A stretch of 64,000 bases of DNA from Marchantia polymorpha subsp. ruderalis (taxonomy: Eukaryota; Streptophyta; Marchantiopsida; Marchantiales; Marchantiaceae). A program made the position numbers and the translations under genes. The notes under the pieces are model-generated. The model worked only from the letters and a program-made list of their open reading frames with translations. It searched no databases and had not been told where the DNA came from. Shown here piece after piece: positions 31,976 through 52,437 of this stretch. Each line of letters opens with the position of its first letter. Position 1 is the stretch's first letter. The stretch is taken from positions 19,284,501-19,348,500 of the forward strand of contig AP031353.1 of assembly GCA_037833965.1 (NCBI GenBank). Direction: 5' to 3'.

Positions 31976-32010
31976 CGTAGTGCAGTGTAGTGCTAGTAGG
32001 ACTTAGAAGG

Positions 32011-32018: not shown

Positions 32019-33589
32019 AGTTCCAGGCGTTTTGCCTGGGGTTCTTTCCCAAACTCAGAAGTATAGATCAGGAACCCATTTCCTTTGCGTGTTTGTGTCC
32101 TTGAGTTCTGTCACCACGCACGAGGAGTTACAACTTAGCGTTCCGCATTTTGTAGCTGAAGGCCTTCGGCCGAATGTTCAGAGCTAGTACATTGGTTAGA
32201 GACTTGAGTAGTTCGGATCTGCACCTGCGGGTGACTGCCGATGCTCAGAGCCAGTGACTAGTTAGATACTTGAACAGTTTCGCCCCTACACCTTCGAGTG
32301 TTTCTTTCTGATTGTACTCCTTGGGATTTTTCCCCTGAATGCCAAAGTGAAGTTTTGCTACTTCGTGTAAGCCTTGGTTGTAAATTCAGGTTACGCTGCA
32401 GCAGGTGCCTTGAGGGTAACCCCTGTAGTATTTCTGGGAATGACAAGTGCCTGAGAGTTCAAACTCTTCAATAGACTGTTGTTGTGTTACTGGAATGTTT
32501 CACAGTGAGTCCTTCAGTGCGAACCTGTGTTCTCTGCGCGTTTTGTGAGTTGAGAGTGTTGTTCACCGCGTCTGAGTGACTTCGATCCGAAGTAAGCAGT
32601 CCAAACCGGGTTTCCTACACTAGCAGCAAGCTAGTGGAAGCGTTGTAAAAGCCGGAGTTGGAAGTCACTGCCCGCAGCTTTGCCGAGTGTGCTCGTGAGA
32701 GACTTTTCCCCCCTGAAATCTTGAAGTAGAGGTCCTAACGGATCTCTGGGTTGTGTTTCTGTGGTTTCAGGTGTGTGTGTGTGTGTGTTACGCTGCACTG
32801 TGCGACCTCCGAGTGCGCTCCGAGTGGACACTTGCAGTATTTCTGGGAGTGACAGTTGCCTGAGAATTCAAACTCCTCAATAGTCTGTTAAAACGTGACA
32901 CTTTGTACCCTGTGTGTTCCTCTGTCCTTGTGGGTTCGACCTTTCTACCACTATATTGCAGTTTTAGCCTTTAGTGGGTTATTACACGCCGACGCCGAAG
33001 CGCCTGTGCACAGGCGAGCGCCTGTGCGTAGGCGGACTTCGCGCCTCCCCAAACCCTACTTCGCCTGTGCACAGGCGAACGCCTTCGTCCGCGCATAGGA
33101 CAAAACTTGATTCCCCCTTCCGCATAGGCGGAATTCCCGCCGGTGGCGAACTCCTTCCGCCGAAGGCGACCGTCTCCGTATCTTCCAATAGTGATAACTC
33201 CCTAAGTCCTCATCCGTTCCAAGCGTTCTTGTACTCGTTGGAATCAGTGCGTCGAGCTCTTTCCAACGAAACCCTAACTTGGTCAAGGCGCCCGAGGGTT
33301 GACCTAATTATGGAGGATTTCCCTACCGCCACGGACGCAACCTCCGAAGGCGGGTTTTGCGCCTTGCGTCGCAGGGATCCTAACTGCAGAGCTCGCAGGG
33401 AGGGTGGTGCCTGTCCTTACTGCTGCACCCCAAATCCTAGATTCTACAAGATCCCTCGAGAATCCCCGCGATCTTCCGGATTCACTCCGTTTTGATGTAC
33501 CGAAGGCTATTTATAATGCTGCCAGGGTACAGTTTTCCAAAAATGTTTTAATTTCCTCAAAATTGCCAAAAGTGGGGTACCACAGAGCA

Positions 33590-34148
33590 CCTGAGAAAGT
33601 TCCTAGAAATTTTCATCGACGACTTTTGTGTCTTCGGTAAGAGGTCGGAGCACCTTAACCATCTTCGGCAAACGTTCGACAGATGTAGGGAGAGCAGCTT
33701 GTCCTTACACCCTGAGAAATGTTTTTTCTTCATGACCACCGGAATCCTGCTAGGGCACCGAGTTTCGTCCGATGGCATTGCAGTGGATGTAGAGAAGGTG
33801 AAGATTATTCTCGAACTGCAGCCGCCAACGAATCTGCGTGAGTTGAGGGCCTTCCTTGGCCATGTAGGTTATTACAGAAGGTTCATAAATATGTACGCCA
33901 TCTTGGCAGCCGATCTGACGAAGCTGCTTAAGAAGGATGAACCCTATGTGTGGGGCAAAGAGCAACAGCTGGCCTTTGAAACGCTCAAAGCCAAACTGAC
34001 GACTGCTCCGGTTCTGAGAAGTCCGGATTGGAACAGACCTTTCCATGTCTATGTAGACACGTCGGCATTTGCCATCGGAGTGGTTCTCAGTCAGAAGGAC
34101 GACAACAAGAAAGACTACCCGATTTACTTCGCGAGTCGTCAGTTGTCA
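33590..34148 (+). CDS. pol: Pol part 2: RT active site to RNase H start
   Basis: Continues pol after LTR D. It begins by completing a His codon split by the insertion, then carries the RT catalytic box FIDDF, the thumb/connection region with GHRVSSDGI and FLGHVGYYRRFI, and the RNase H start with FHVYVDTSAFAIGVVL (catalytic Asp in YVDTS). It ends in ASRQLS at 34148, where LTR F inserted (duplication TGTCA). The frame is continuous with no internal stop. Confidence 0.93.
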
Positions 34149-34360
34149 TGTGGTAACCCACTTTTTGTTTTTTATCGGAACTAAAACATTTTTGAATAGT
34201 AAGTACCGCGGCAGTAGCTGTAAATAGTAATCGGTACGCGAAACCAGAGGATCGAGGACAGTCAAGGGGTTTTGGGCTTAGGCCACAGTGGGACGCTTGG
34301 GACGGAACGGGCGGTTCATGCTGCAGGATCCGCTTCGAGCACCTTTGGCGGTAGATCACT

Positions 34361-34480
34361 CATAACTTTCTCAATTCGTAACGCTTTGAGTTGCTTAGGG
34401 TCTCGTTGGAAAGAGCTCAACGCGCTGGTTCTAACGAGCCCAAGAACTTGTGAAACGGATGAGAGATCACTGAGTTATGA
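34361..34480 (+). repeat. Nested inverted-repeat cassette, first of three in LTR F
   Basis: A cassette of about 120 bp bounded by CATAACT and AGTTATGA. An inner pair TTGGAA...TTCTAA lies around the conserved AGAGCTC core. Further copies are at 34654-34774 and 35175-35294. Other LTRs have one copy each (family I 44131-44250, also 120 bp; family II near 37115-37229). The inner arms differ between copies but stay mostly pairable (TTGGAA/TTCCAA, TTAGAA/TTCTAA). Confidence 0.65.
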
Positions 34481-35017
34481 GTGTCGGAAGTTACTGATGG
34501 GGGGCCTTCGGCGGTAGAGCGACTTTGGCGGTACGCCTTCGGCGGAAGAACCGCCGGAAGATGCGCCTTGGGCGGTAGACGCCTTCGGTCAACGCCTTCG
34601 GGTCAACGCCTTTGGCGATGCGGGAGAGTGCATTCGGCGGAAAAGTGAATCCCTCATAACTTTCTCAATTCGCAACGCCTCGACTTGTTTAGGGTCTCGT
34701 TGGAAAGAGCTCGACGCGCTGATTCTAACGAGCCCAAGAACGCCACGAACGGAGGAGAATTCCGGGAGTTATGAAGGTCGCAAGATACTCAGCTTTCCGC
34801 CTACGCACAGGCGAAGAAAGTTTTGTCCTATGCGCGGACGAAGTAAGTTCGCCTGCGCACAGGCGTTCGCCTGTGCACAGGTCGCCTGTGCACAGGTCAC
34901 CTCCACACGTGCCGCCTGTGCACAGGCGCTTCGGCGTCGGCGGGAAATCCGCCTTGGGCCCTAGAAATGCACCTTGTGAGGTAGAAAGTGTACGGCGCCT
35001 TCTGCGCCAGCTCAGCG

Positions 35018-35132
35018 CCGCGGACGGACAATTCAGCGCAGCGGACGGACAGCTCAGCGCCGCGGACGGACAGGTCAGCGCAGCGGACGGACAGCTTAGC
35101 GCCGCGGACAGCCAGGTCATCGCCGCGGACGG
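35018..35132 (+). repeat. 21-bp minisatellite in LTR F U3
   Basis: Five and a half units of 21 bp of the type CCGCGGACGGACAGCTCAGCG, with CCGCGG and CAGCGG starts alternating. In the local open frame it would encode repeats of SAADGQL, and the frame 34771-35208 also spells the HRRSPVHR motif seen in the LTR proteins. I regard it as non-coding, since no conserved domain of the LTR protein is present. Confidence 0.8.
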
Positions 35133-35739
35133 ACTGTGGATAGGCGAACGCCTTCGGCGGAAGAGTAAAACCGACATAACTTTCTCAATTCTTAGCGGTT
35201 TGACTTGATTCGGGTCTCGTTGGAAAGAACTCGACGAGCTGGTTCCAACGAGACCAAGATCTCTTGAAACGGATAAGGCGTCAATGAGTTATGAGCGTCG
35301 AAAGCGGCTGTCATGGTTAGGCGTGAGGCCTTCGGCGTTAACAGTTAGAGGGGCCTTCGGCCCAAGGCGGCCTGCGAGTAGGCGGCTTGCGTGTAGGACG
35401 CGTGGGACCCGCAGTCCTCGGATTTTGGAGAAGGAATTTTGGACTAGGTTCAGAGATCTTGCGGGGCCCATATCTTTGCGATGGACGGTCGGATGGATCT
35501 GAAATTTTGTGGGGCCGTTGATCTCGGCCGGCCACGCATGCCTGCAAATTTTCAGCCCCAGATCTTGGATGGTAAGGCGCTGGCGGCTCTGTACAGTAGG
35601 CTTAGGATTCAGATTTAGGGTTAGGGTTAGATTTAGGTTGTAAGTTAGAGGAGAAGGCAGCCGCCGACTCCTCAAGTGTAGGATCTGTTGCGGCTCGCAC
35701 CATGGTAGTGCAGTGTAGTGTTAGTTAGGATTTAGAAGG

Positions 35740-35747
35740 TATAAAAT
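35740..35747 (+). promoter_or_regulatory. TATA box of LTR F
   Basis: TATAAAAT in the same context (TTTAGAAGG before, hairpin after) as family II LTRs. The LTR promoter core is kept although the upstream gene is absent. Confidence 0.7.
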
Positions 35748-36715
35748 AGTTCCAGGCGTTTTGCCTGGGGTTCTTTCCCATCAGAAGTGCAGATCAGGAA
35801 CCCATTTCCTTTGCGTGTTTGTGTCCTTGAGTTCTGTCACCACGCACGAGGAGTTACAACTTAGCGTTCCGCATTTTGTAGCTGAAGGCCTTCGGCCGAA
35901 TGTTCAGAGCTAGTACATTGGTTAGAGACTTGAGTAGTTCGGATCTGCACCTGCGGGTGACTGCCGATGCTCAGAGCCAGTGACTAGTTAGATACTTGAA
36001 CAGTTTCGCCCCTACACCTTCGAGTGTTTCTTTCTGATTGTACTCCTTGGGATTTTTCCCCTGAATGCCAAAGTGAAGTTTTGCTACTTCGTGTAAGCCT
36101 TGGTTGTAAATTCAGGTTACGCTGCAGCAGGTGCCTTGAGGGTAACCCCTGTAGTATTTCTGGGAATGACAAGTGCCTGAGAGTTCAAACTCTTCAATAG
36201 ACTGTTGTTGTGTTACTGGAATGTTTCACAGTGAGTCCTTCAGTGCGAACCTGTGTTCTCTGCGCGTTTTGTGAGTTGAGAGTGTTGTTCACCACGTATG
36301 AGTGACTTCGATCCGAAGTAAGCAGTCCAAACCGGGTTTCCTACACTAGCAGCAAGCTAGTGGAAGTGTTGTAAAAGCCGGAGTTGGAAGTCACTGCCCG
36401 CAGCTTTGCCGAGTGTGCTCTTGAGAGACTTTCCCCCTGAAATCTTGAAGTAGAGGTCCTAACGGATCTCTGGGTTGTGTTTCTGTAGTTTCAGGTGTGT
36501 GTGTGTGTGTGTTACGCTGCACTGTGCGACCTCCGAGTGCGCTCCGAGTGGACACTTGCAGTATTTCTGGGAGTGACAGTAGCCTGAGAATTCAAACTCC
36601 TCAATAGTCTGTTAAAACGTGACACTTTGTACCCTGTGTGTTCCTCTGTCCCTGTGGGTTCGACCTTTCTACCACTATATTGCAGTTTTAGCCTTTAGTG
36701 GGTTATTACATGTCA

Positions 36716-36843
36716 GCAGCAAAGAAGAAGTACACGACAACTGAGAGGGAGGCGTTGGGAATGGTGTACTCCTGTAAGAAGTTCCGACATTATTTGATCT
36801 GCTATGAGTTCGTGTTTCATGTAGATCATTACGCCTTACAGCA
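36716..36843 (+). CDS. pol: Pol part 3: RNase H middle
   Basis: A 128-base stretch between LTR F and LTR G. It reads on in frame from ASRQLS with KKKYTTTEREALGMVYSCKK and FVFHVDHYALQH. TEREAL carries the RNase H catalytic Glu, and HVDHYAL the later Asp region. It ends in the middle of a His codon, where LTR G inserted with the duplication CAGCA (36839-36843). Confidence 0.92.
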
Positions 36844-38088
36844 TGTGGTACCCCACTTTTGGCAATTTTGAGAAAATTAAAACACTTTTGGAAAACTGTA
36901 CCCTGGCAGCATTGTAAATAGCCTTCGGTACATCAAAACAGAGTGAATCCGGAAGATCGCGGGGATTCTCGAGGGATCTTGTAGAATCTGGGATTTGGGG
37001 TGCAGCAGTAAGGACAGGCACCACCCTCCCTGCGAGCTCTGCAGTTAGGATCTCTACGGCGCAAGGCGCGAAACCCGCCTTCGGAGGTTGCGTCCGCGGC
37101 TGTAGGGAAACCCTCCATAATTAGGTCAACCCTCGGGTGCCTTGACCAAGTTAGGATCCCGTTGGAAAGAGCTCGACGCACTGATTCCAACGAGCCCAAG
37201 AACGCTTGGAACGAATGAGGACTTAGGGAGTTATCGCTATTGGAAGAAACGGAGGCGGTCGCCTACGGCGGAAAGAGTTCGCCACCGGCGCGAATTCCGC
37301 CTACGCGGAAGGGGGAATCAAGTTTTGTCCTATGCGCGGACGAAGGCGTTCGCCTGTGCACAGGCGAAGTAGGGTTAGGGGAGGCGCGAAGTCCGCCTAC
37401 GCACAGGCGCTCGCCTGTGCACAGGCGCTTCGGCGTCGGCGGAAAATCCGCCTTGGACCCTAGAAATGCGCCTTGTGAGGTAGAAAGTGTACGGCGCCTT
37501 CCGCGCCAGCGCGGCGCCGCGTACGTCGGAAGAGCCGCCAGAGTAATCAAATCGGTACGGACCATGCGGACGGGAAGGGTGGATGCGCTCTTGGACGGAC
37601 GGAGTTGCGGCGGCGGAAGCGCCGACGAAGAGACAAGGAACGGACAGACTTGACGGAGACGGCTGACCACGGTCAACGCCTTCCGCGCCAGCGCGACGTA
37701 GCGCACGGAATTCGCCTGCGCACAGGCGAACGCCTGTGCACAGGAGGATGAAGTTCCGTGCCGGCGGAGAATCCGCCGAGGCTCTTGCCTGCGCACAGGC
37801 AGGAGTTGAACTTTTGTCCGACATGCGGACACACGCGTCAAGGCAGAGGGGGGATTGGCCGAGGGGCGGTACGAACAAGTGTACCGCGCAAGGTGGAAAA
37901 CTCGCCTTCGGCGCTACGCCCCCATGTCCGCAGGGTAATACGCTCGCGGAGTTCAAATCCGCCAATTCGAGCGTGAGAGTTTAATCGACGACGGCGGAGC
38001 GTGAAGCCGCGCGTGAGAGCGAAGACCGTTTCAGCGTACAGCCGGCGCGGCCATCAAGTGAGACGTTCTTCACGAGCAAGAGCCGACC

Positions 38089-41000
38089 ATGACCTTCGAC
38101 CGGGCGGCGGAGAACGTCCCATTCTTGAATTCGCGATTCCAATCTCTTGTGCGCGCTGCGCGCATCCATCTGCTGGCTGCGGAACATTCTCGACGTCGTC
38201 GCACAGGAGATTTCTTGTTGATTGAGGGAGAGGTGAGTGCGCGTGATTTGGAATTGAGGGCGATTAGAGTTTGCCGAGAGAGAAAGAAACCCGGGCGGTG
38301 CGGAAGTAGAATGAGCGGGCGAGCGAACCCCAGGAACGCAATGACGAGACCGAGCAGATTGCGGATGGTGCCACTTCGCCTACCGCAGAACGGGCTTCGC
38401 GCTTTTGAGGAGCGCTTAATAGCAAGAAAGCTCGATTTCTTGCTATGGGGATGGAATTACATCTGTGCGAATATGGTGCGCGAGTGGCTAGAGCCACAGG
38501 GACCACCCTCGCGCGGATTGCGTCCACATGTTGACCGGTGGACAGTCCAAGATTGGGCGCAGGCGTTGGGAAGATGTGCTGGCATGCCAGGGCATCTCCT
38601 TTTCGACAGTGAGAGCATCAAGGTGACCAAGCAAGAAGAGGCGCAATTTGTGGAGCTGTTCAAGACCGGGAGGTCTACCAAGAATGGGTACAGGACCCGT
38701 GATTACAAGGATCGATTTCGCCGGACTTTGTCCGCGGCGCTGATGCAATTACTGCAGCCGCACCGCGCCTGCTACATCACATTGTGGCAGGTCTCTTTTG
38801 TGGAGTGCGTCATCGAGGGAACTCCAATTCACTGGGCGAGCATCCTGCACAGGGTGATGCGACAGCACGCGTTTGAGGAGAAGGGGGGAACTCTAAACCA
38901 TCTTTCTCCTTTCCTCATCAATTTTTATCGACAGCGGAATTGTTTGACAGCGGCGGAGCTTGAACATTTTCCGCCATTGTCCATCGACCATCCCGGGAAG
39001 TATGTGCGGGAGAATGAGGTCGACACTGATGCAGAGGAGTCACCAACTTCTACCCCATCAAGACGGAGGGACGAAGGGAGACACACTCCCGCAGCACGAG
39101 TGCCGCGGAAGCGGCGATGGAGGGAAGAGTCCGAAGAGGAGCAGCATCAAGAACCCTCTGCTCCCATTCGACCGCGGCCGCTGTGCGAGCCATACAGCCG
39201 GCCGAAGCAGAAGGCACGCAGACTGGTGTTACCAGCTGACAGTGCGGACACGGCGACGATTGCGACGGAGAAAGGAAGTGCGTCGCCAGAGGAGCATGAG
39301 GAAGCGCGGACGACCGCAGGAGCGACGGGCCACGCTGCAACCTCGACGGGAGAGAGGCCGCCTACGGGCCAAGGGCCTCCGGAGTTACCACGTGCGATGC
39401 GGACAGATGTTCCGTTTGCGCAGAGACGAGCCTCCGCGGACGGACGAGCCTCCGCGGACCGGCGAACACAAGTGGACGTGGATCTACGCTTACGCGTGGG
39501 AAGGAGCAGTCCGCCTTTGCACAGGCGATCACCTGTGCACAGGTCGCCTGTGCACAGGTCGCCTGTGCACAGGACGCCTCCACACGTGCCGCCTGTGCAC
39601 AGGCAAGAATCACCCCCGTTCCAACGTAGGAAGGGGAAGGAGCCGGCGGAAGAACCGCCTACGAGACACCGGCCCTCGGGGCCAGACCCTCCGGCGCACC
39701 ACGCGCCGCAATTTGCGCCTTCGGCGCGAGGGCCTTCGAGCCGAGGAGATACGAGCAGAGAGCGTGCGGAGGCCGCACCATCGGCGGGAAGTCCGCCGAT
39801 AGATGCGCCTTCGGCGGTAGGGCCTATAGGCCAAGGAACATCGGGCGTGCGGCCCCCGGCCATGTCGCCTTCGGCGATAGATGTCCGCGGCGCTACGCCT
39901 GCGGCGGACAAGGCGCCGGCAAATGCGCCTGCGCACGGGCCGGGCACAGCCCCCACGGACCGATCAAGGGAGCAGCAACAGACGGAGGAGCGGAGTGACT
40001 GTCCGCGGGATGAAATCTCGATGCGCGATGCGCAATCAAATCCCGCGCAGTCACCCTCCGCTCGATCGCCTTCGGCGGCGGACGACGGCGGCAGAGAGGA
40101 TGCGGTAGACAATCAACAAGCGAGCGACGGGGATGCCGCACGGGTACATTCGCCTTCCGCCTTAGACATTTTGGCGACGAGCAGCGAGGCTGCAGCCGTG
40201 CCTTCGCAGGCAGCACACGTCGATGACGTGCAGCCCCACTCGGGGCAGTCGCCGACGCAATCAATGGCGACTGAAATTCTCCACTCGGATGATGACGACG
40301 GAGGCTCCACGGAAGAAATGTCAGGAGCAGAAGACACCGAGGAGGAGGAGGAGGAAATTGTTGGAGCGCCGGCGGCGGCGCTCTCTGAGCAGGTGATTCC
40401 GTTGCTGCGGTACTTGGATCGCAAGGTCGATAAATACGCCGACCCACTCCAGCCGGGATCTTACATCGAGTTAGTGCGCAGGCGGACTCGCACTAAAGTC
40501 CACACCAGCAAGCTATTAGCTAGAGTGGACCAGGAGTTGAAGGAATTGAAGGAGAAGCATGCGTGCTTGTGGGGTCAGTACAAGCTTAATCAGAAATTCT
40601 ACAAGCACTCCGAGAAGATGAAGGATGAGAAACTGGACGAGCTCACCAAGGAGCAGGTGAAGGTCAAGGAAGCACTCATTTCTGAGCAGGCCCAAAATCG
40701 GATTTTGTCAGAGGAGCTCGTGCGACAGACGCGGTTGTTGGAACAATGTCAGCTCGCACGGCAGGCGGATGAAGAGTTAATCCGCAGGTTACAGTCAGAG
40801 TGTGGCGAATTGAGAGCGCAACGTGCTGAAGCCGAATCGCAATTAGTGATAATTGAAGAGGATCGCAGGAAGGAGGCGGATCGCACGAAGGTGGAGACGG
40901 CGAGGCGAGTCGCCCACTGTCTCAAGGGCTACGCCCACTGGGAAGTGAAGGCGCAGGAGAAACTCACACTGCGTGAGTTTGAATTGCGCGCAGCCGGGTT

Positions 41001-41244
41001 GTTGTCAGGCGACAGTAGGAGTCGGCGGAAGGTAGCAAAGAAGCTCGATGCCTTTCTGTCGAAGGCACAGGATACCATGTCCGCCCTCGAAGGGGAGGTG
41101 TCCGCGGCGTTGCAGCGGTTGGAACTGCGCAGTCGAGCGGAAGATTGGCAGGGTAGGGAGTTAGTGCGCGTCAGTCGGCCGCGCAGGAGACGTAGTACAG
41201 GTTCCGCGGAGTGTAGTGTAGCGTGGTTCCGTGCAGGCGTGTAG
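38089..41244 (+). CDS. Intact U3-encoded LTR protein, family II (1051 aa)
   Basis: The longest intact copy. ATG at 38089 follows GAGCCGACC. Domains as in the LTR E copy: N-terminal domain about 85-315, KRRWREE at about 345, disordered middle, acidic DDDD...EEEEEE patch near 740-760, coiled coil, basic tail with RRRRSTGSAE. It is 6 residues longer than the LTR E protein: one extra five-residue SPVHR repeat and one extra Gln in a QQQ run. The terminal domains are nearly identical between copies, and also recognisable in family I, while the middle differs greatly. This suggests selection on the ends. No catalytic motif of any polymerase, protease, integrase or transposase is visible. Transcription could come from the genomic RNA of a full element or from an unidentified U3 promoter; the downstream TATA box cannot serve it. 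Confidence 0.88.
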   Translation: MTFDRAAENVPFLNSRFQSLVRAARIHLLAAEHSRRRRTGDFLLIEGEVSARDLELRAIRVCRERKKPGRCGSRMSGRANPRNAMTRPSRLRMVPLRLPQNGLRAFEERLIARKLDFLLWGWNYICANMVREWLEPQGPPSRGLRPHVDRWTVQDWAQALGRCAGMPGHLLFDSESIKVTKQEEAQFVELFKTGRSTKNGYRTRDYKDRFRRTLSAALMQLLQPHRACYITLWQVSFVECVIEGTPIHWASILHRVMRQHAFEEKGGTLNHLSPFLINFYRQRNCLTAAELEHFPPLSIDHPGKYVRENEVDTDAEESPTSTPSRRRDEGRHTPAARVPRKRRWREESEEEQHQEPSAPIRPRPLCEPYSRPKQKARRLVLPADSADTATIATEKGSASPEEHEEARTTAGATGHAATSTGERPPTGQGPPELPRAMRTDVPFAQRRASADGRASADRRTQVDVDLRLRVGRSSPPLHRRSPVHRSPVHRSPVHRTPPHVPPVHRQESPPFQRRKGKEPAEEPPTRHRPSGPDPPAHHAPQFAPSARGPSSRGDTSRERAEAAPSAGSPPIDAPSAVGPIGQGTSGVRPPAMSPSAIDVRGATPAADKAPANAPAHGPGTAPTDRSREQQQTEERSDCPRDEISMRDAQSNPAQSPSARSPSAADDGGREDAVDNQQASDGDAARVHSPSALDILATSSEAAAVPSQAAHVDDVQPHSGQSPTQSMATEILHSDDDDGGSTEEMSGAEDTEEEEEEIVGAPAAALSEQVIPLLRYLDRKVDKYADPLQPGSYIELVRRRTRTKVHTSKLLARVDQELKELKEKHACLWGQYKLNQKFYKHSEKMKDEKLDELTKEQVKVKEALISEQAQNRILSEELVRQTRLLEQCQLARQADEELIRRLQSECGELRAQRAEAESQLVIIEEDRRKEADRTKVETARRVAHCLKGYAHWEVKAQEKLTLREFELRAAGLLSGDSRSRRKVAKKLDAFLSKAQDTMSALEGEVSAALQRLELRSRAEDWQGRELVRVSRPRRRRSTGSAECSVAWFRAGV
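39512..39604 (+). repeat. Palindrome array inside the U3 gene
   Basis: A run of the 12-bp palindrome CCTGTGCACAGG and close variants, about every 15 bp, encoding HRSPVHR repeats. Unit number differs among LTRs: three SPVHR units before TPPH here, two in LTRs C and E, one in LTR D. The same array occurs as non-coding sequence in LTR F (34866-34930) and scattered singly through all U3 regions. Confidence 0.8.
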
Positions 41245-41280
41245 CGTAGTGCAGTGTAGTGCTAGGTAGGACTTAGAAGG

Positions 41281-41288
41281 TATAAAAT
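41281..41288 (+). promoter_or_regulatory. TATA box of LTR G
   Basis: TATAAAAT, 36 bases after the stop of the U3 gene, followed at 41293-41309 by the CCAGGC-GTTTT-GCCTGG hairpin. Confidence 0.7.
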
Positions 41289-42265
41289 AGTTCCAGGCGT
41301 TTTGCCTGGGGTTCTTTCCCATCAGAAGTATAGATCAGGAACCCATTTCCTTTGCGTGTTTGTGTCCTTGAGTTCTGTCACCACGCACGAGGAGTTACAA
41401 CTTAGCGTTCCGCATTTTGTAGCTGAAGGCCTTCGGCCGAATGTTCAGAGCTAGTACATTGGTTAGAGACTTGAGTAGTTCGGATCTGCACCTGCGGGTG
41501 ACTGCCGATGCTCAGAGCCAGTGACTAGTTAGATACTTGAACAGTTTCGCCCCTACACCTTCGAGTGTTTCTTTCTGATTGTACTCCTTGGGATTTTTCC
41601 CCTGAATGCCAAAGTGAAGTTTTACTACTTCGTGTAAGCCTTGGTTGTAAATTCAGGTTACACTGCAGCAGGTGCCTTCAGGGTAACCCCTGTAGTATTT
41701 CTGGGAATGACAAGTGCCTGAGAATTCAAACTCTTCAATAGACTGTTGTTGTGTTACTGGAATGTTTCTCAGTGAGTCCTTCAGTGCGGACCTGTGTTCT
41801 CTGCGCGTTTTGTGAGTTGAGAGTGTTGTTCACCGCGTCTGAGTAACTTCGATCCGAAGTAGGCAGTCCAAACCGGGTTTCCTACACTAGCAGCAAGCTA
41901 GTGGAAGTGTTGTAAAAGCCGGAGTTGGAAGTCACTGCCCGCAGCTTTGCCGAGTGTGCTCGCGAGAGACTTTTCCCCCCTGAAATCTTGAGTAGAGGTC
42001 CTAACGGATCTCTGGGTTGTGTTTCTGTAGTTTCAGGTGTGTGTGTGTGTGTGTGTGTGTGTTACGCTGCACTGTGCGACCTCCGAGTGCGCTCCGAGTG
42101 GACACTTGCAGTATTTCTGGGAGTGACAGTTGCCTGAGAATTCAAACTCCTCAATAGTCTGTTAAAACGTGACACTTTGTACCCTGTGTGTTCCTCTGTC
42201 CCTGTGGGTTCGACCTTTCTACCACTATATTGCAGTTTTAGCCTTTAGTGGGTTATTACACAGCA

Positions 42266-43724
42266 CCTGGTGAAGAAGGCGGATCTGTCCGGACGAATTG
42301 CCAGGTGGGTACTACTGCTGCAGGAATTCACCTACACTGTACAGACACGGAAAGGCGTTCACCATGAGAACGCGGACTACCTCTCCCGACTATGGACCGA
42401 ACCCATAGAGGAGGAAGTAGTGGATGATTTTCCCGACGAACAACTTTTTCAGTTGTCCGCCAGCCATGAGTCCAGGTACGCGGACTTATACAGGTTTCTG
42501 CTCACACTCCAATGTCCGGAAGGATTGGATGCGGAGCAGCGCACGGTCTTCGTTCATAAAGCGGGACCTTACCAACTTCAACAAGGGGTCTTGTTCAAAA
42601 AAATGGCAGACGAGAGGTTGTGCAGATGTCTAGAGGAGTCCGAAGTCCCGCGAGTTGTCAAAGCCATGCACACAGAAGACGCTGGTGGTCACTACGCCAC
42701 CAGAAATACAGTGACCAAAATTGTGAATGCAGGATACTGGTGGCCGACGATGTTCAAAGATGTACACGACTACGTTCGCAAATGCGACAGCTGCCAGAGG
42801 ACGGTAAGGCCGACTCCGACCACGAGATGGCCTCTTACACCAATCATGTCATTGGCACCATTTGAAAAATGGGGGATCGACTTCGTGGGACCAATACAAC
42901 CTGTCACTAAAGGCACGCGCAGGCGCTACATATTGGTAGCAACAGACTATGCGACCAAGATGGTGGAGGCAGAGGCCACAAGGCACGACGACGCAGCCGC
43001 AGTAGCACGGTTCCTATTCGAATCAATCATCACACGCTACGGGTGCCCCCTAGAAATAGTCAGTGACAGAGGGACGCACTTTCTGAATCAGGTGATAGAG
43101 AGTTTGACGCGGCACTTCCAGATTAAGCATCGGAAGACTACTCCTTACAACCCCAAGGCAAATGGTCTGACAAAGAAGTCCAATGGATTACTCTGTAAGA
43201 TACTCCTCAAGGTGACTGTAAACCATGCTCATGACTGGGACACCAAGCTACCGGCCGCCTTATGGGCATATAGAACGGCGGAAAAAGTCACCACCAGGCA
43301 AACATCTTACTTTCTAGTTTATGGGCAGCATCCGATTTTACCCATCGAATTCGAGATACCTACCAAGAGAACCTTAGATCAGAGACGGCTGGACGCGGAG
43401 GAAAGTCAGGCATATCAACTGCAAGAGGTAATGGCACTGGAGGAAAGACGTCAAGAGGCCGAAGATCGAACAAAGCAATTACAACTCAGGCGGAAGGAGA
43501 AGTACGATCGAAGGCTCAAACCAGTACTGCTGGAGAAGGGCGACTTGGCTCTGCTATACGATAGCAGACATGCTCGATTTCCAGGCAAGCTCCACTTGAG
43601 GTGGATGGGACCTTACAAGGTGATAGAAGTTTTTCCGAATGGATCCATCCAACTCGCAGAACTGACGGGAGAATGGTTAGGCACCCGCGTGAACGGATGG
43701 CGTCTGAAGAAATACCACGTGTAA
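42266..43724 (+). CDS. pol: Pol part 4: RNase H end and integrase (catalytic Glu replaced by Lys)
   Basis: Completes pol. The RNase H end (HHENADYLSR) is followed by the integrase zinc finger of HHCC type (MHTEDAGGH ... CDSC), the catalytic core, and a C-terminal GPY/F-like module (RWMGPYKVIEVF) ending at 43724. In the core the first Asp is at 42879 (GIDFVGP) and the second at 43065 (VSDRGTHF). Exactly 35 residues later, at codon 43173-43175, stands Lys in NGLTKKSNG, where Ty3/gypsy integrases have the catalytic Glu. A single G to A change in a CAG/CTG context explains it. The enzyme is expected to be inactive. Removing LTRs D, F and G and one duplication each restores one frame to gag. Confidence 0.92.
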
Positions 43725-43746
43725 ATGTTCGCGTGGGCGCTCACAA

Positions 43747-43761
43747 TTGAGGAGGGGGGCA
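43747..43761 (+). other. Polypurine tract
   Basis: TTGAGGAGGGGGGCA directly before the 3' LTR tip TGTGG at 43762. It lies 22 bases after the integrase stop, the expected place for plus-strand priming. Confidence 0.85.
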
Positions 43762-45120
43762 TGTGGTAACACACTTTTTGTTTTTTTTGCAGAATTTAAA
43801 CAATTTTAGAAAACTAGTACCAAAGCAGTGTTTGTAGCTAGAGAAGGGTACGCTAAATAGAGTGGATTGATGAGATCGTCACGAGGACACAAAAGAATCA
43901 CGTAGTCGGATGTACCAACGCCAATGTCTTCGGCGCCTTCGGCAAAAGCTCCTTTTCTGAGGTGTCTCTACTCACGCGCCTCCAGCGTATAAGGAAGCTA
44001 CGCTTTCGGCGCAGACACCTCAGGAGGAGGTTTTGCTAAAGACGTCAGGAGAAGGGCCCGGACCTCTAAAGGCATCCGACCATGAGTGCGCCTTCGGCGA
44101 AGCGCCGCTAGCGCGGAAAGGGAAAACCTTCATAACAATCGGGATACACGGTAGATCCAGTTGGTTGAAGTTGCATTAGAAAGAGCTCGGGACGCTCGTT
44201 CTAACGAGTCCAAGAGCGTCGGAGATGGATCAGGAATGGAGAAGTTATGAGCGTCGGAAAACTCGTAGCCGGACATGCGCCGTTCGCGCTAGGGTTCACA
44301 GCCGGAAAGGATTCCCGTACGCCCTCGGCGATGCGCCTTCGGCGGAATCACGCGCTCATAGGAGGAAACCAACTCAGAGTCGGAAGCGCCTTTGGCGGCT
44401 GTTCATGGAAGGAAAGCGCCGGTCGGATGTACGCCTCCGACGTGGCGCTGACGGCCGGATGCGCTGGCATGAGTTGCGCTGATGGATATGCGCCGGCAAC
44501 AACGGACGAGGCATAAGGGACAAAATAGGCGGTACGACTGCGCGCCGGCGTAATTCGATCCGACTGGATGTGCGCCTCCAGCAAGGCGCCGACTGATAAT
44601 GAACGCACCAGCGGCGACACGCCTCCGGAGAAGGGCGGGTTAGGAAAAGACAACAGGGCCGACGTATACCCTGCAGCGGACTCGAGTCCGGAAGGTGGCG
44701 GCGGCGGGAGAATTCAACGTTTAAGCATGCGAATGCGCGCAATGCGGAGACGTGAATTCGCGCATGCAAAGGGCGAACCGTTAAGCCGTATAGCCGGCTG
44801 CGTACGTTGCAACCAGTAAGAACGTTGGACGTTCTTGAAATCGGAGAAGAAAAGACTGCGCTCCAGTCTCATTCTCTCATTCTTGACTTTGCGATTTCCA
44901 GTTCCAAGATTACGCGCAAGGGCGGAGCGACCTGCAGTGAGAGTAGAGAGTGCGGAGAAGAGTTGCGCAAGGATCTTGGCGGACCTTGAAAGAATTGTGA
45001 GTAGCGATCTTGAACGAGCGCAGAGAGAGTGAGCAGTCAGTGCTTGAGTGGCCGACGCGCAGTGGCGATTGTGAGAGAGCGAGCGAAAGGGAGAACGTTT
45101 GTGTGTGTGCAGGCAACGCA

Positions 45121-47676
45121 ATGTCGAAGGTTCCCCAGCTGCGAGTGTCTCCACTCAGGGTGCCGCAGATCGGTCTACGCGCATTTCAAGATGTGCTGTT
45201 GAGGCTGAAGCTCGATTTTCTCCTATGGGAGTGGAATTGGACATGTCCGGAAATGGTGCGCGAGTATCTGCAGGAGAGACACAAGCCTTCTCGCGGATTT
45301 CGCCCACACCCAGAGAGATGGGACATTTGCAATTGGGCGCAGGTGTTGGGCAGGTGTGCCGGCGAGGAAGGGGATCTCCTCTTCGAGGCCGATAGCGTGA
45401 AGGTGTCCCAGGAGGAAGAAGTCTCTTACAATGAGCTCTTCAAAGTGGCCAGACATCCCAAGAACGGTTTCCGGACACGGGATTACAAGGATCGATTGCG
45501 GAGAAATGTCGCGACAGCATTGCTGCAGATATTGCAGCCGACCAAGACCGCTTACATGCATGGTTGGCAGGTAGAGTTCGTGGAGCTAGTGCTGTCAGGA
45601 GCTCCGGTGCATTGGGCACGGCTCCTGTGGAAGGTGACGCGCCAACATGCGCAAGAAGAGAGGGGAGGAACCCTCAATCATCTATCGCCTTACTTAATCG
45701 TGTTTTACCGGGCGATGGGATGTTTGACGAATGCTGAGAAAACTCGATTTCCGCAGCTGACCCGGACTTATCCAGGAAGATATTCGAGGGAGGCCGAAGT
45801 AGACACAGACCCGGACGAGGAACCTGCCAATACGCCTCCGGCTCCGGCTCCAGCAAGAGCAGCAGAAGAACGTCGAAGTGAGCGCATTCCGCGAAAGCGG
45901 AAGTGGGATGAGAGACCTGAGGACAGGCAGCCGGAAGTGCCAGCTGCGCCGACTCGTGGTCGGCCCACCCCCGAGCCTCACAGTCGACCAAAACAGAGGG
46001 CACGCAAAATGCCAACTGTTACTGAGGGGACCAGGCGAACTCCGACCCGGCGGAATCTCACACAGGAAGAGATAATCGCTCAGATTCTAGGGAAAACGGC
46101 AGAAACCTCTGCACAGAAGGCACCACGGCCTTCGGGAGGAGATGGACGGACTGACAGCCGGCCGACTGCGAGTCGGATGACTGAAGGTCGACAAGCGGAA
46201 GGAAGGCCAACTGAACGGCGCGTTGAACCGGACAGCAGGCCGGAAGCAGAAGAGAGTTTGGCTGACGAGCCAACAATCCTCAGAGGGTCGTCTTCGGCGG
46301 AAGGCACTTCTGGAAGAACGCCACCAGCAAGCAGGCCAAGTAGAGTCAAGACGCGCAGGGTGTATCCGACTCCCAGTCGGACAACTGCTGGTCGGCCGAC
46401 TGCGAGTCGGACAACAGAGAGTCAGCCGGATTCGCCGACTGCGAGACGGATGGGGCCAACGACCAGTGTGCGGACGCCTTCGGCGGACGCACCTTCAGCA
46501 AGGACACCTTCCGCGCAGATTGCGCCGGAAGGACAGGCAGCAGTAGCGGGCGGATCAAGAGTGACAAAAGTCACTGCGGCGTCGACCCCTTCACAAACCG
46601 AAGATCGAGCCGGAACAGGGGCTCAAGCAGTGGGATCTCCCACTGCCCTGGATATTTTAGCAGGCAGTGGAGCAGCAGTCGCAGCGGAAGCTGCTGCGCG
46701 CCACAGTTCCAGGGAGTCGCCAAGGAATTCGGTGGCGACTGAAATCCTCGAGACTGAGGATGATACGAGCTCGGAAGAGCAAGAAGAGGATTCGGTGCAG
46801 AAAACGCCAACAGGGGTGCTGTGCGAACAGATAGTTCCACTCCTGCGATATCTGGATCGCAAGACATCCAAATACGCAAGTGCCTTAAAACCGCAGTCTT
46901 ATGTGGAGACTATCAGGCGAAGGACGAGGAGCAAGGTGGCAAGGTGGGCCTCTAGGTGCCAAATATATGTGGATAGGAACACCGCCCTCCGACAACACCT
47001 GGCGGTCACACAGAAGCTATACCAAGCCTTGCAGCAGCAGAGGGAGGATGCGGCGACGAAAAGTCAGGCGGATGCCGAACTAATTCGGGCAAAGATCGAG
47101 TCGGAACTGCAGGAGGAGCGGAGACAGAACAAAGTCCTAGCAGCCGAGCTTGCGCGCCAGACGCGCGCCTTAGAAGAAAGTCAAAGGGCCCGCAAGGAGG
47201 ATGAGGAGTTGTTGTGCAACTTGCAATCCGAGTGCTCGGATTTGAGGGCACAACGTGCGGGATTAGAAATGCAGCTGGCCGAGGTGGAGAGCAGCTGCAG
47301 GGCGCGAGGAGAGTTGGCGGCACAGGTGACTCGTTGTCTAAAAGGATACGCCCATTGGGAGGTGGCAGCTCAAGAGAGGATTACACTCCGGGAGTTCGAG
47401 CTTCGGGCGGCGGCACTGACGGAAGGTGACAGTCGGAGTCGGCGGCGAGTGGCGAGAAAATTAGAAACCTTCTTGTCGGGTGCGCGCGACACTATGGCGC
47501 ACTTGCAGTCGGAAGTCACCACAGCGCTCCGACGCCTGGGGTTACGCAGCCGGTCGGAAGACTGGCAAGGTAGAGATAGTAAGCGGAGCTGTCCGGCGCG
47601 CAGGAGGCGCAGCACCGGATCTACTGAGTGCAGTAGAGTAGTTTGGTTTCGCGCAGATGCTGCGAGTGGTAGATAG
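45121..47676 (+). CDS. Intact U3-encoded LTR protein, family I (851 aa)
   Basis: ATG at 45121 begins MSKVPQLRVSPLRVPQIGLR. The frame is open another 37 codons upstream, but without ATG, and family II aligns from this Met. N-terminal domain at residues 1-230 (KLDFLLW, FRTRDYKDRLRRN, APVHWARLLWKVTRQHA, GGTLNHLSPYLIVFYR). Basic RIPRKRKWDE near 255. Disordered middle at about 260-560 with RPTASRTTE-type repeats made from CCGACTGCGAGTCGG palindromes. Short acidic ETEDDTSSEEQEED patch. Coiled coil and CLKGYAHWEV motif; basic tail. Gene order relative to gag-pol is that of an extra gene after pol, yet inside U3, so it is duplicated at both ends of the element. Function unknown. The mouse mammary tumour virus superantigen gene is the known precedent for a U3 gene, but no similarity is claimed. 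Confidence 0.9.
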   Translation: MSKVPQLRVSPLRVPQIGLRAFQDVLLRLKLDFLLWEWNWTCPEMVREYLQERHKPSRGFRPHPERWDICNWAQVLGRCAGEEGDLLFEADSVKVSQEEEVSYNELFKVARHPKNGFRTRDYKDRLRRNVATALLQILQPTKTAYMHGWQVEFVELVLSGAPVHWARLLWKVTRQHAQEERGGTLNHLSPYLIVFYRAMGCLTNAEKTRFPQLTRTYPGRYSREAEVDTDPDEEPANTPPAPAPARAAEERRSERIPRKRKWDERPEDRQPEVPAAPTRGRPTPEPHSRPKQRARKMPTVTEGTRRTPTRRNLTQEEIIAQILGKTAETSAQKAPRPSGGDGRTDSRPTASRMTEGRQAEGRPTERRVEPDSRPEAEESLADEPTILRGSSSAEGTSGRTPPASRPSRVKTRRVYPTPSRTTAGRPTASRTTESQPDSPTARRMGPTTSVRTPSADAPSARTPSAQIAPEGQAAVAGGSRVTKVTAASTPSQTEDRAGTGAQAVGSPTALDILAGSGAAVAAEAAARHSSRESPRNSVATEILETEDDTSSEEQEEDSVQKTPTGVLCEQIVPLLRYLDRKTSKYASALKPQSYVETIRRRTRSKVARWASRCQIYVDRNTALRQHLAVTQKLYQALQQQREDAATKSQADAELIRAKIESELQEERRQNKVLAAELARQTRALEESQRARKEDEELLCNLQSECSDLRAQRAGLEMQLAEVESSCRARGELAAQVTRCLKGYAHWEVAAQERITLREFELRAAALTEGDSRSRRRVARKLETFLSGARDTMAHLQSEVTTALRRLGLRSRSEDWQGRDSKRSCPARRRRSTGSTECSRVVWFRADAASGR

Positions 47677-47709
47677 GATAGCGTAGTGCTAGTTAGGATC
47701 TTTTGAGAG

Positions 47710-47716
47710 TATAAAG
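47710..47716 (+). promoter_or_regulatory. TATA box of the 3' LTR
   Basis: TATAAAG in the context GAGAGTATAAAG, 34 bases after the stop of the U3 gene. Identical to the 5' LTR copy. Confidence 0.75.
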
Positions 47717-48646
47717 TAGATCAAGGCGTTTTGCCTTGGGACTCTTCCAGTTTCGGAAGTGCAGATCAGGAACTCACTTTCTTGACGTGTTTGTGCATTT
47801 TGGTCCTGGCACCACGTAGAGAAGCTGCAGCATAGCGAAGTTACCGTATGATGTAGTTGAAGGCCTTCGGCTGAATGTTCAGAGCTAGTACCCGGTTAGA
47901 GACTTGAGTAGTGCGGATCTGCACCTGCGGGTGATTTCTGATGCTCAGAGCCGGCTACGAGTTAGAGACTTGAACAGTTCCCCCTTACTCCTTCGAGTGA
48001 CATATCCTGATTGTACTCCTACGGGAAGTTTCCCCTGAATGCCAATGTGAAGTTTCATTACTTCGTGTAAACCTTGGTTTGTAATTCAGGTTGTGTGTGT
48101 GTTACTGGATCGTGTTTTCAGTAAGTTCTCAGTCGGGTCTGCACTCCCTGCGTTTGGTGTGATAGTCGAGGGTGACGTCCACGGCGTATGTAGAGGCTTC
48201 GTTCCGAAGTGGGAAGTCCAGTCCGGGTACCCCCGCTAGTTCCTGGCGGAAGGGCAGTAAAAGCCGGAGTGGGAGGCACTACCTGCAGAACCTCTGAGTG
48301 AACTTGTGAGACACTTTCCTCCTGAAATCCGAAGCGGAGGTCCTGACCGACCTCCGAGTTGTGCTTTTTGCCAGTTTCAGGTGTGTGTGTGTGTGTGTGT
48401 GTGTGTTGAGTGACCAAGCTGTACCGTGCATCCTCCGAACATCCTCCGAGTTGAGTTCCTCCTCCGAGTAGAGCCTCCGAGTCGAGCACTGCAGTATTTC
48501 TGGGAGTGACAGTCGCCTAGAATTCAAACTCTACAAAAATCTGTTAAACGTGACACTTTTACTCTGTGTGTTGCCTCTGTCCCTGTGGGTTCGATCTTTT
48601 TACCACCATACTGCAGTTTTAGCCTTTGGTGGGTTATTACAACTTC

Positions 48647-51600
48647 CGACTCTCAGTGCGCCATAGTGTCGCGCGCACCCGACAAGAAGGCTTCTAATTT
48701 CCTCGCTACTCGCCGCCGACTCCGACTGTCACCCTCCGTCAATGCCGCCGCCCGAAGCTCAAACTCCCTGAGTGTGATCTTCTCTTGAGCTGCCACCTCC
48801 CAATGGGCGTATCCTTTTAGACAGTGAGTCACCCGCGTCGCCAACTCTTCTCGCGTCCGGCTGCTGCCTTCCACCTCTGCTAGCTGCATTTCCGCATCTG
48901 CGCGCTGCGCCCTCAATTCCGCGCACTCGGATTGCAAGTTGCGCAACAACTCCTCATCCTCCTTGCGTGTGCTTTGACTTTCTTCTAATGCGCGCGTCTG
49001 GCGCGCAAGCTCCTCTGTTAAGATGCGGTTTTGTCTCCGCTCTTCCTGCAATTCCGACTCGATCTTTGCCCGCATTAGCTCAGCATCCGCCTGGGCTTTT
49101 GTCGCCACATCCTCCCTCTGTTGTTGCAGGGTTTGGTGTAGCCTCTGCGTGATCGCCAGGTGCTGTCGGAGGCAGTATACCTATCCTGCAATGTTTGGCA
49201 CCTAGAGGCCCAAGTGGCCACCTTGCTCCTCGTCTTGCGCTTGACAATCTCCACATAAGACTGCGGTTTTCTGGGACCCGAGTACTTTGATGTCTTGCGA
49301 TCCAAATATCGCAGGAGTGGAACTATCTGCTCGCACAATACCCCTGTTGGCGTCTTCTGCACAGAGTCCGCTTCCTGCTCTTCTGAACTCGTCTCATCCT
49401 CTGTTTCGAGGATTTCGGTCGCCACAGAATCTCTTGGCGACTCCCTGGAACTGTGGCGCGCGGCAGCTTCCGCCGCGACTGCCGCTCCACTCCCTGCATA
49501 AATATCCAAGGCAGTGGGGGATCCCACTGCCTGAGCCCCTGTTCCGGCTCGATCTTCGGTTCTCGAAGGGGTCGGCGCCGCAGTCACTTTTGCCACCCTT
49601 GCACCGCCCGCTTCTACTGCCTGCTCTTCCCGCGCGATCTGCGCGGAAGGTGTCTTCGCCGGAGGTGTGTCCGCCGAAGGCGCCCGCACAATGGTCGCCG
49701 GCCCTGTCCGTCTCGCAGTCGGCGAATCTGACCGACTCTCAGTTGACCGACTCGCAGTCGGCCGACTAGCAGTTGTCCGACTGCCGGTGGATCTACCCTG
49801 CGCGTCTTCACTCCACTTGGCCTGCTTGCTGGCGGCGTTTTCCCAGAAGCGCCTTCTGCCGAAGGCGACCCTCTCAGGGTTGTTGGCTCGTCAGCCAAAC
49901 TCCCTTCTGCTTCCGGCCTGCTATCCGGTTCAACGCGCTGCTCGGTTGGCCGTACTTCAGTTGGCCGACCTTCAGTCGCCCGACTCGCAGTCGGCCGACT
50001 GTCAGTTCGCCTGTCTTCTTCTGGAGGCATCGGTGCCTTCTGCGCAGAGGTGTCCGCCGACCTCCCCAGAATCTGCGCGATTATCTCTTCTTGCTTGGGC
50101 AGGATACTCCGCCGGACCGGAGTACGCCTGGTCTCCTCAGTACTAGTTGGCAACACCACTTTGCGTGCCCTCTGTTTCGGCCGGCTGTGAGGCTCGTTGG
50201 TTGGCCGACTCCGAGTCGGCGCCGCGGGAGCTTCCGGCTGCCTGTCTTCCAGTCTCTCATCCCATTTCCGCTTCCGCGGTGCGCGCTCGCTTCGACGCTC
50301 TTCTGCTGCTCTTGCTGGGGCCGGAGCCGGAGCTGGAGCTAGAGCTGGACTGGCAGGTGCTTCGTCCGGATCTGTGTCCACTTCGGCCTCCCGCAAGTAT
50401 CTACCTGGATAACTCCGGGTCAGCAGCGGAAACCGTGTCCGCTCTGAAGTTGTCAAACATCCCATCGCTCGATAAAACACAATCAGGTAAGGCGAAAGAT
50501 GATTGAGGGTCCCTCCTCTCTCTTCTTGCGCATGTTGGCGCGTCACCTTCCACAGGAGTCGCGCCCAATGAACCGGAGCTCCTGACAACACTAGCTCCAC
50601 AAATCCCACTTGCCAACCATGCATGTAGGCGGTCTTGGTCGGCTGCAATATCTGAAGTAATGCAGTCGCGACATTTCTCCGCAATCGATCTTTGTAATCT
50701 CGCGTCCGGAAACCGTTCTTGAGATGCTTGGCAACTTTGAAAAGATCATTGTAGGAGATTTCTTCCTCCTTGGACACCTTCACGCTCTCGGCCTCGAAGA
50801 GGAGAAACCCTTCCTCGCCTGCACACCTTCCTAACACCTGCGCCCAGTCACTAATGTCCCACCTCTCGGGATGTGGGCGGAATCCGCGCGAGGGCTTGTG
50901 TTTCTCCTGCAGATACTCGCGCACCATCTCCGGACATGTCCAGTTCCATCCCCACAGGAGGAAGTCAAGCTTCAGCCTTGTTAACACATCTTGGAATGCG
51001 CGTAGACCGATCTGCAGCACTCTGAGTGGAGACACTCGCAGCTGGGGGACCTTCGACATCTTCCTTGCGTTTCCTGCACACACACACAGACGTTCTCCCT
51101 TCCGCTCGATCTCTCACAATCGCCGCTGCGCGTCGGCCGCTCAGACACTGACTGAAATCGCTCTTTCTTCTCTTGCGCGCTCAAGTTCGCTGCTCGCAAA
51201 CTCTCTGCAAGGTCTGTCAAAATCCTCGCGCAACTCGTCTCCGCACTCTCTCTTCTCACTGCAGGTCTCTCCGCCCTTGCGCGTAATCTCTGAAGCTGGA
51301 AAACTCACAATCAAGAATGAGAGAATGAGACTGGAGCGCAGCCTTTTCTTCTCCGAATTCAAGATCACCCAACGTTCTCACTGGTTACAATCAAACTTGA
51401 TTGCGCAGCCGGCTATACGGCCTAACGGTTCTCCCTCGCATGCTCGAATTCACGACTCCGCACTGCGCGCATTCGCATGCGTGAACGTTGAATTCTCCCG
51501 CCGCCATCGTCTTCCAGACTCGAGTTCGCCGCAGTGGAGCGTATGCTTCGACTAGGTTGTCTTTTCCTAACCTGACCATCGCCGGAGGCATATCGCCGCT

Positions 51601-52437
51601 GGCGTAATCCTTCTCCGTCGGCGCCTCGCTGGAGGCGCACATCAAGTCGGCGCGAATTACGCCGGCGCGTATTCGTACCACTTTTTTTGTCCGTTCTGCC
51701 CCGCCTATCGCCAATGGCGCATATCCCGCCGGCGCAAATCATGCCAGCGCACCCGCCTATCCGCGCCACGTCGGAGGCGTACATCCGGCCGGCGCTTCTC
51801 TTCCGTTGCGCAGCCGCCAAAGGCGCTTCCGCCTCTGAGTTGATCTCCTCTCATGAGCGCGTGGTTCCGCCGAAGGCGCATCGCCGAAGGCGTACGGGAG
51901 TCCTTTCCGACGGTGAACCCTAGCGCGAACAGCGCATGTCCAGATGCAAGTTTTCCGACGCTCATAACTTCTTCGTCCCTGATCCATCTCCGGCGCTCTT
52001 GGGCTCGTTAGAACGAGCGTCCCGAGCTCTTTCCAATGCAACCTCAACCAACTGGAACTACGGTGAGTCCTGATCGTTATGAAGGTTTCCCTCCCGCGCT
52101 AGCGGCGCATCGCCGAAGGCGCACTCATGGTCGGAAGCCTTCAGGGGTCCTTGCCGGCTTCTGACGTCTTCAGCGACATCTCCTCCGGAGGTGTCTGTGC
52201 CGGAAGCGTACTTTCCCTAAACGCTGGAAGTGCGTGGGTAGAGACACCTCAGTAAAGGAGATCTTGCCGAAGGCATTTGGCGCTGGTACGTCCAACTTCG
52301 CGTTTCTTTGTGACCTCGTGACGATCTCCTCAATCCACTCTATTTAACGTACCATTTCCTAACTACAGACACTGCTTCGGTACTTCTTTTCTAAATTGTT
52401 TAAATTCTGCAAAAAAAACAAAAAGTGTGTTACCACA
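48647..52437 (-). mobile_element. Solo LTR B, family I, second segment (U3 and gene)
   Basis: The larger part of LTR B in minus orientation. It resumes after the complete element and ends GTGTGTTACCACA at 52437, followed by the duplication AGCAC (52438-52442). It carries the broken U3 gene (51059 to 48647) and non-coding U3 (51060-52437) that matches 43762-45120 in reverse with clear divergence. Its decay and its role as host of the complete element make it one of the oldest insertions here. The intact host site is visible in copy 2 at 57184. Confidence 0.93.
48653..51059 (-). pseudogene. Broken U3-encoded protein gene of LTR B
   Basis: Family I gene starting at ATG 51059 (MSKVPQLRVSPLRVL). 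The frame is normal through the N-terminal domain and part of the middle. A one-base loss near 49787 shifts it (product then reads VGQLLVGRL instead of the SRTTAGRPTASR type). A second one-base loss near 49171 shifts it again before the coiled coil. A TGA at 48652-48650 replaces the Leu codon after DTMAH. The complete element then interrupts the gene, and its last 50 codons lie at 8912-8765. It cannot encode a normal product. An extra alternating Ala/Pro run (near 50320-50350) distinguishes it from the complete element's copy. Confidence 0.88.

What the first reader, a model, noticed from the sequence alone, without database searches (positions are those of the whole stretch)
43762..48641. Giant LTRs that carry their own protein-coding gene in U3
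Both 4880-bp LTRs of a complete Ty3/gypsy element, and six of the seven solo LTRs, contain in U3 a long sense gene or its remnant for an 850-1050 aa protein of unknown family. It ends about 35 bp before the LTR TATA box. Boundaries are certain (TG...CA, 5-bp duplications, primer-binding site and polypurine tract abutting). Three copies are intact after long divergence into two families. The protein ends are conserved while the middle is not, which suggests selection. U3 genes are known in some animal retroviruses (mouse mammary tumour virus sag), but I know of no described plant element with a gene of this size wholly inside the LTR.
Basis: partly seen in the sequence, partly recalled or inferred. 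Interest (0 to 1): 0.92.

Follow-up and report, generated by a model that had tools for sequence, protein, structure and literature searches.

The report
Liverwort retrotransposon gene inside its LTRs
A jumping-gene family that is common in a Marchantia-type liverwort keeps a large extra gene inside the repeats at its own ends, and natural selection has preserved that gene, an arrangement otherwise known mainly from a mouse retrovirus.

Summary
The 4880-bp repeats are true LTRs: TG...CA ends, 5-bp target duplications, two paralogous empty sites, primer-binding site, polypurine tract, and gag, protease, RT pieces and integrase between them. Of 30 fetched family I copies, 12 are solo LTRs with exact duplications, 5 precede the PBS, 4 follow the PPT, 2 do both, 7 are unclassified. 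The LTR carries in U3 a sense ORF of 851 (family I) or 961-967 codons (family II) that ends 33-36 bp before a TATAAA. Among top-scoring places, 39 of 53 (family I) and 33 of 43 full-length (family II) lack a stop. The N-terminal domain is under strong purifying selection: N/S 0.02-0.12 among four unselected family II copies, and 0.10 against 0.17 for integrase in the same six family I copies, though the whole ORF gives 0.28. No significant Pfam match; all ten relatives found are Marchantia polymorpha hypothetical proteins. Best reading: a nuclear accessory gene of a non-chromovirus Ty3/gypsy lineage, placed like sag of mouse mammary tumour virus but a new protein family. Expression route and biochemical role are inferred, not shown.

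The parts
8918..19197 (+). 5' LTR of the family I element, interrupted by II-a at 9567-14961
43762..48641 (+). 3' LTR of the family I element, 4880 bp
45121..47676 (+). U3 gene of family I, 851 codons, open
15677..18232 (+). U3 gene in the 5' LTR, one stop
45110..45120 (+). AG-containing stretch just before the ATG where DNA similarity between families begins; possible splice acceptor (inferred)
47710..47715 (+). TATAAA, presumed promoter of the genomic RNA
19220..19237 (+). primer-binding site (tRNA-Asp type, recalled)
43747..43761 (+). polypurine tract
19281..22106 (+). gag and protease ORF, 941 codons
22107..22801 (+). first part of RT, up to the nested insertion (RT recognised by eye)
33585..34184 (+). 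RT and RNase H continuation after the nested insertion (recognised by eye)
42270..43724 (+). end of RNase H (by eye) and integrase
9567..14961 (-). family II solo LTR II-a, TSD TGGAA, gene with one stop
22802..33584 (-). family II solo LTR II-outer, TSD GAGCA, holds II-b; gene with one stop
27591..32986 (+). family II solo LTR II-b, TSD CGCCG; gene 29090-31975 open
36844..42260 (+). family II solo LTR II-c, TSD CAGCA; gene 38341-41244 open
35705..36710 (+). truncated family II LTR end without the gene
4689..7674 (-). shortened family II solo LTR, TSD CTTTC, C-terminal remnant of the gene
7789..52437 (-). older family I solo LTR (7789-8917 and 48642-52437), TSD AGCAC, into which the full element inserted; gene broken

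Best explanation
A Ty3/gypsy lineage without a detected chromodomain, in a Marchantia liverwort, has 4.9-5.4 kb LTRs that carry wholly inside U3 an accessory gene for an 851-967 aa protein of a new family. Shown: the LTR anatomy; the gene in two families with open copies and, decayed, in a third; and purifying selection on the replicating lineage, strongest in the N-terminal 230 residues. Inferred: the product is a soluble nuclear regulator that enters the nucleus by its conserved basic motif and self-associates through its helical C-terminus, helping the element's own RNA or DNA (RNA export, transcription or escape from silencing, in the manner of Rem/Rev, Cer1 CERV or Grande gene 23). Inferred: it is made from a short mRNA ending in R/U5, either spliced to an acceptor before its ATG as in MMTV sag, or started in the 1.36 kb of U3 upstream. 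The TATA box of the genomic RNA follows directly after its stop codon.
For: LTR status. Gene in two families and full-length elements. Selection: against near-neutral change after insertion (11 amino-acid-changing, 6 synonymous). Start codon kept in three families and TATA position in two. Basic motif PRKR[KR]W in 11 of 13 proteins and SRPKQKAR-type in 8 of 13; no 19-residue window of transmembrane grade (threshold recalled). Parallels: MMTV uses an acceptor just upstream of the ORF in the 3' LTR (PMC3026287, passages); Cer1 CERV has an NLS and a leucine zipper and is needed for genomic RNA export (PMC10309623, passages); Grande gene 23 is nuclear (PMC7264820).
Against: No expression or localisation data. 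No fold: both N-domain models were poor (pLDDT 39.8 and 42.1). The coiled coil is weak evidence (6-11 of 16 a/d positions hydrophobic, no control; SMC match E 0.22). The AG before the ATG lacks a good pyrimidine tract in family II and may be start context only. Whole-ORF N/S (0.28) is above that of integrase (0.17) in the same copies. Copies were picked by protein score, which lowers N/S. Lineage not tested by a tree.
Confidence: 0.7

Rival explanations
1. The ORF is a chance or passenger frame in a long GC-rich LTR, without function; its openness reflects recent copying.
For: Copies are young and similar (97-100%), and the middle tolerates much change.
Against: 851 codons against a maximum of 389 in 1000 random LTRs; open in two families at 57% N-domain identity; N/S 0.02-0.12 in the N domain; all length differences inside the ORF of the four family II copies keep the frame.
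Confidence: 0.03
2. A structural or particle protein, for instance a second Gag-like or chaperone protein, expressed in the cytoplasm.
For: Helical N domain and helical C region, which would also suit assembly.
Against: The element already has gag with capsid and zinc-knuckle matches; no gag-type Pfam match in the U3 protein; conserved basic motif suggests the nucleus.
Confidence: 0.12
3. A captured host gene carried along, whose selection reflects host use or recent capture.
For: Gene capture by plant LTR elements is documented (PMC7264820, text parts 1-2).
Against: No relative outside Marchantia was found, and those found resemble the LTR gene itself (the search needs shared 5-residue words, so distant relatives may be missed). 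The closest match in this genome to annotated P0001, L031, also lies in LTR-like sequence.
Confidence: 0.1
4. An env-like protein, as in some plant gypsy and copia elements.
For: It is a sense ORF downstream of pol in the genomic RNA.
Against: No transmembrane-grade segment (maximum 1.22 and 1.14 on the Kyte-Doolittle scale); it lies inside U3, not between pol and the LTR.
Confidence: 0.04

Closest known systems
Mouse mammary tumour virus sag (PMC3026287, passages)
   Same: Sense gene inside the 3' LTR; lengthened LTR; [quoted passage not shown]
   Different: MMTV LTR about 1.3 kb; Sag is an immune superantigen. Here LTR 4.9-5.4 kb, 851-967 aa, no sequence family in common detected, plant retrotransposon.
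Plant additional ORFs: Grande gene 23, RIRE2, Retand TRP28 ORFs (PMC7264820, parts 1-2; PMC11963269, passages)
   Same: Large accessory ORF kept in most copies; nuclear product in Grande; coiled-coil/SMC-like matches in some.
   Different: Those lie between pol and the 3' LTR, antisense; here sense and wholly in U3. No PF04195 match.
Retrosat2, RIRE3, RIRE8 ORF0 (PMC3485330, passages)
   Same: Long LTRs (about 3 kb) and a fast-evolving extra ORF of unknown function.
   Different: ORF0 lies upstream of gag-pol in the internal region by that description; found in grasses.
Cer1 CERV (PMC10309623, passages)
   Same: Novel nuclear accessory protein of an LTR retrotransposon with NLS and coiled coil, from a spliced mRNA.
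   Different: Cer1 LTRs are 491-492 bp; no sequence comparison made here.
[not shown]
   Same: Tat-lineage gypsy elements without additional RNase H, reported in both Marchantia genomes of that study; PBS type here fits the Tat/Athila group (recalled).
   Different: Placement not tested by a tree here; the passages seen do not mention a gene in the LTR.

Membership tests
LTR retrotransposon, Ty3/gypsy | Two LTRs with TG...CA, target duplication, PBS and PPT | tested here: met
LTR retrotransposon, Ty3/gypsy | gag, protease, RT, RNase H, then integrase, in that order | tested here: met
   Pfam for gag, protease and integrase; RT and RNase H by eye, not by profile
Tat/Athila lineage | Position on an RT or integrase tree | not tested
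   No reference set; no chromodomain reported in the integrase ORF; PBS type recalled
MMTV sag-like arrangement | Gene wholly or mainly inside U3, sense | tested here: met
MMTV sag-like arrangement | Spliced subgenomic mRNA | not testable with these tools
   Only a candidate acceptor is seen
TRP28 (PF04195), Transposase_32 (PF20167), plant mobile domain (PF10536) | Match to the family profile | tested here: not met
   No match up to E 1; genome-wide searches for PF04195 and PF20167 were empty, but no control genome rang
Env-like proteins | Transmembrane segment | tested here: not met
Nuclear accessory regulators (Rev, Rem, CERV type) | Nuclear localisation and binding of element RNA | not testable with these tools
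   Only a conserved basic motif is seen

The most novel reading that the evidence does not exclude
The U3 gene is a self-contained transcription unit, so the LTR itself is a gene-carrying module: loss of the element body by LTR recombination leaves a working gene. With 6383 LTR 3' ends but 1376 LTR-PBS junctions in the genome (different mismatch limits, and some ends may belong to LTRs without the gene), much of the pool of product would come from solo LTRs, a dispersed regulator that could control silencing or expression of the whole family.
Probability: 0.3. Interest if true: 0.92.

Novelty: new variant of a known kind. Interest (0 to 1): 0.78.

Why it matters
The plant additional ORFs described in the review read here lie in the internal region (PMC7264820, parts 1-2). 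A conserved gene of 851-967 codons wholly inside U3, in families whose LTR ends number in the thousands in one genome, changes what a solo LTR can be (a gene, not only a promoter), would explain why these LTRs are so long, and adds a protein family that annotation now lists as hypothetical Marchantia proteins. Marchantia polymorpha is a laboratory plant, so the expression route and role of an LTR-borne accessory gene can be tested directly.

Tried and rejected
Chance ORF: disfavoured. Env-like: disfavoured. TRP28 and Transposase_32 by whole-genome profile search: no match, but no positive control rang, so absence is not shown. Pfam, NCBIfam and PDB sequence searches: nothing significant (best E values 0.004 to 0.65, low-complexity or coiled-coil-type matches under the curated cut-offs). 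AlphaFold2 on the N domain twice: mean pLDDT 39.8 and 42.1, so no fold search was run. gag comparison with L066: misaligned (46% identity, 49 stops), dropped; only the L065 pair was used. Pairs L001-L002 and L010-L007 are inflated by interrupted LTRs and are not used. The 593-codon ORF at 55001-56782 shows no similarity to the U3 protein. True copy numbers of the gene are not given: the genome search scored 53 of 13171 and 47 of 13988 first-look candidates.
Full report
Setting. The window is C4:19284501-19348500 of a 241.5 Mb genome in 9 contigs. The relatives of the U3 protein found among 5.8 billion proteins are ten hypothetical proteins, all of Marchantia polymorpha subsp. ruderalis (3 hits, 8, one shared); P0001 has a 98% match in this genome. 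I take the host to be Marchantia polymorpha or a close relative; this is inference.

Anatomy. The family I element spans 8918-48641 with ACTTC on both sides. Its LTRs are 99.5% alike: 3 differences in 649 bp and 22 in 4238 bp. The PBS starts 22 bp after the 5' LTR and the PPT abuts the 3' LTR. gag-protease (19281-22106) and integrase (42270-43724) match Pfam; RT and RNase H were recognised by eye in pieces separated by nested insertions. The element sits in an older solo LTR of its own family; four family II LTRs and one truncated piece lie inside it. Joined flanks of the older solo LTR and of the shortened family II LTR match uninterrupted paralogous DNA at 57152 and 57043 (76 of 80 and 70 of 80), the pre-insertion state.

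Genome-wide check. A search with the family I protein scored 53 of 13171 first-look candidates, the window's own two included; 39 of 53 have no stop. Of the 30 loci fetched, 12 are solo LTRs with exact 5-bp duplications, 5 are followed by the PBS, 4 are preceded by the PPT, 2 have both, 7 are truncated or unclassified. Family II: 33 of 43 full-length rows have no stop, nor do the four split places; a tandem element at C4:11.30 Mb has the same PPT and PBS. The LTR-PBS junction occurs 1376 times and the PPT-LTR junction 1230 times (up to 2 mismatches), the LTR 3' end 6383 times (up to 1 mismatch); reversed controls gave 0. Of 64 listed LTR-PBS junctions on C1-C3, 43 have a listed PPT junction within 20 kb, 36 of them at 5760-5795 bp. 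These counts may include LTRs that lack the gene; the share that holds it was not measured. A published assembly of M. polymorpha ruderalis is said to hold 222 full-length LTR elements (PMC9985172, passages), fewer than the junction counts here; I cannot explain the gap beyond method or assembly.

The gene. ORF 45121-47676 is far longer than chance. It aligns with family II at both ends. The start codon is shared with decayed family III copies: 12 of 25 P0001-search loci matched the start motif, one of these (L044) through a family I-like copy. Family III has no copy shown intact: P0001-type matches mostly hold stops, and the longest frame of L031 starts after the N-terminal piece. TATAAA follows the stop by 33-36 bases in families I and II. 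DNA similarity between I and II begins near the AG before the ATG.

Selection. Between families I and II identity is 57-58% (N), 37% (middle) and 56% (C), with synonymous sites near saturation, so that ratio is only indicative. Four family II copies, taken because they lie in the window, give N/S 0.02-0.12 (N), 0.17-0.27 (C), 0.43-0.71 (middle). Thirty family I copies chosen by protein score give 0.06, 0.26, 0.32; variants shared by copies in the N domain are 3 nonsynonymous and 34 synonymous. Six of these copies give 0.10 (N), 0.35 (C), 0.53 (middle), 0.28 overall, against 0.17 for their integrase. One gag-protease pair gives 0.24. Differences gained after insertion between the two LTRs of the window element are 11 amino-acid-changing (one a stop) and 6 synonymous, nearer neutral but few. 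Selection thus acts on the replicating lineage.

The protein. No significant Pfam, NCBIfam or PDB match. The N domain is predicted helical at low confidence. The middle is rich in proline, serine and threonine and holds two conserved basic motifs (11 of 13 and 8 of 13 proteins); the C region is basic and nearly free of proline, with weak heptad signal; no transmembrane-grade segment.

How it may work. Strong selection despite many open copies that could help in trans suggests that the product serves, or is made by, the same copy, as for gag-pol (inference). I commit to a nuclear accessory regulator. Between a spliced subgenomic RNA and a promoter in U3 I cannot choose.

Literature. Ten answered searches of open PMC papers listed, by title and abstract, no plant element with a gene wholly inside the LTR; the only paper for the direct wording concerns MMTV (listing only). 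Retrosat2 ORF0, Grande, RIRE2 and Retand ORFs are internal. The survey PMC6317226 has none of six terms looked for, and PMC9985172 has no word beginning with ORF. In orchid and other plant gypsy elements the most frequent atypical domain is the plant mobile domain (PMC9289625, passages), not matched here. Subscription papers and preprints are not covered, so priority is not proven.

Noticed in passing
55001-56782 (-), 2753-3934 (-), flanking repeats 52437-59330: A multicopy gene-like ORF (593 codons, and a 393-codon relative) without a Pfam match; its duplicated surroundings supplied the empty sites. No similarity to the U3 protein.
   Followed up: partly
G000 C3:17733776-17740911: Three LTR-PBS junctions spaced about 3.19 kb, each with a PPT junction about 0.74 kb on: a tandem of short, probably non-autonomous derivatives.
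   Followed up: no
G000 C1: C1 (5.59 Mb by subtraction of the other contig lengths) holds 19 of the first 100 listed exact LTR-PBS junctions against 21 on C2 (31.6 Mb). A small, element-rich contig of a 9-chromosome Marchantia suggests a sex chromosome (inference).
   Followed up: no
L023-L025 (C7:486795-510661); C4:11303136-11354227: Tandem arrays sharing LTRs; LTRs of L023-L025 differ by 0 to 2 of 4867 compared positions, so some copies are very recent or recently duplicated.
   Followed up: partly
P0001, P0003, P0006-P0010: Annotated Marchantia proteins look like gene models of this U3 ORF with parts of the N domain left out, perhaps as false introns; for P0001 the two matched pieces lie 270 bases apart in the genome.
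   Followed up: partly
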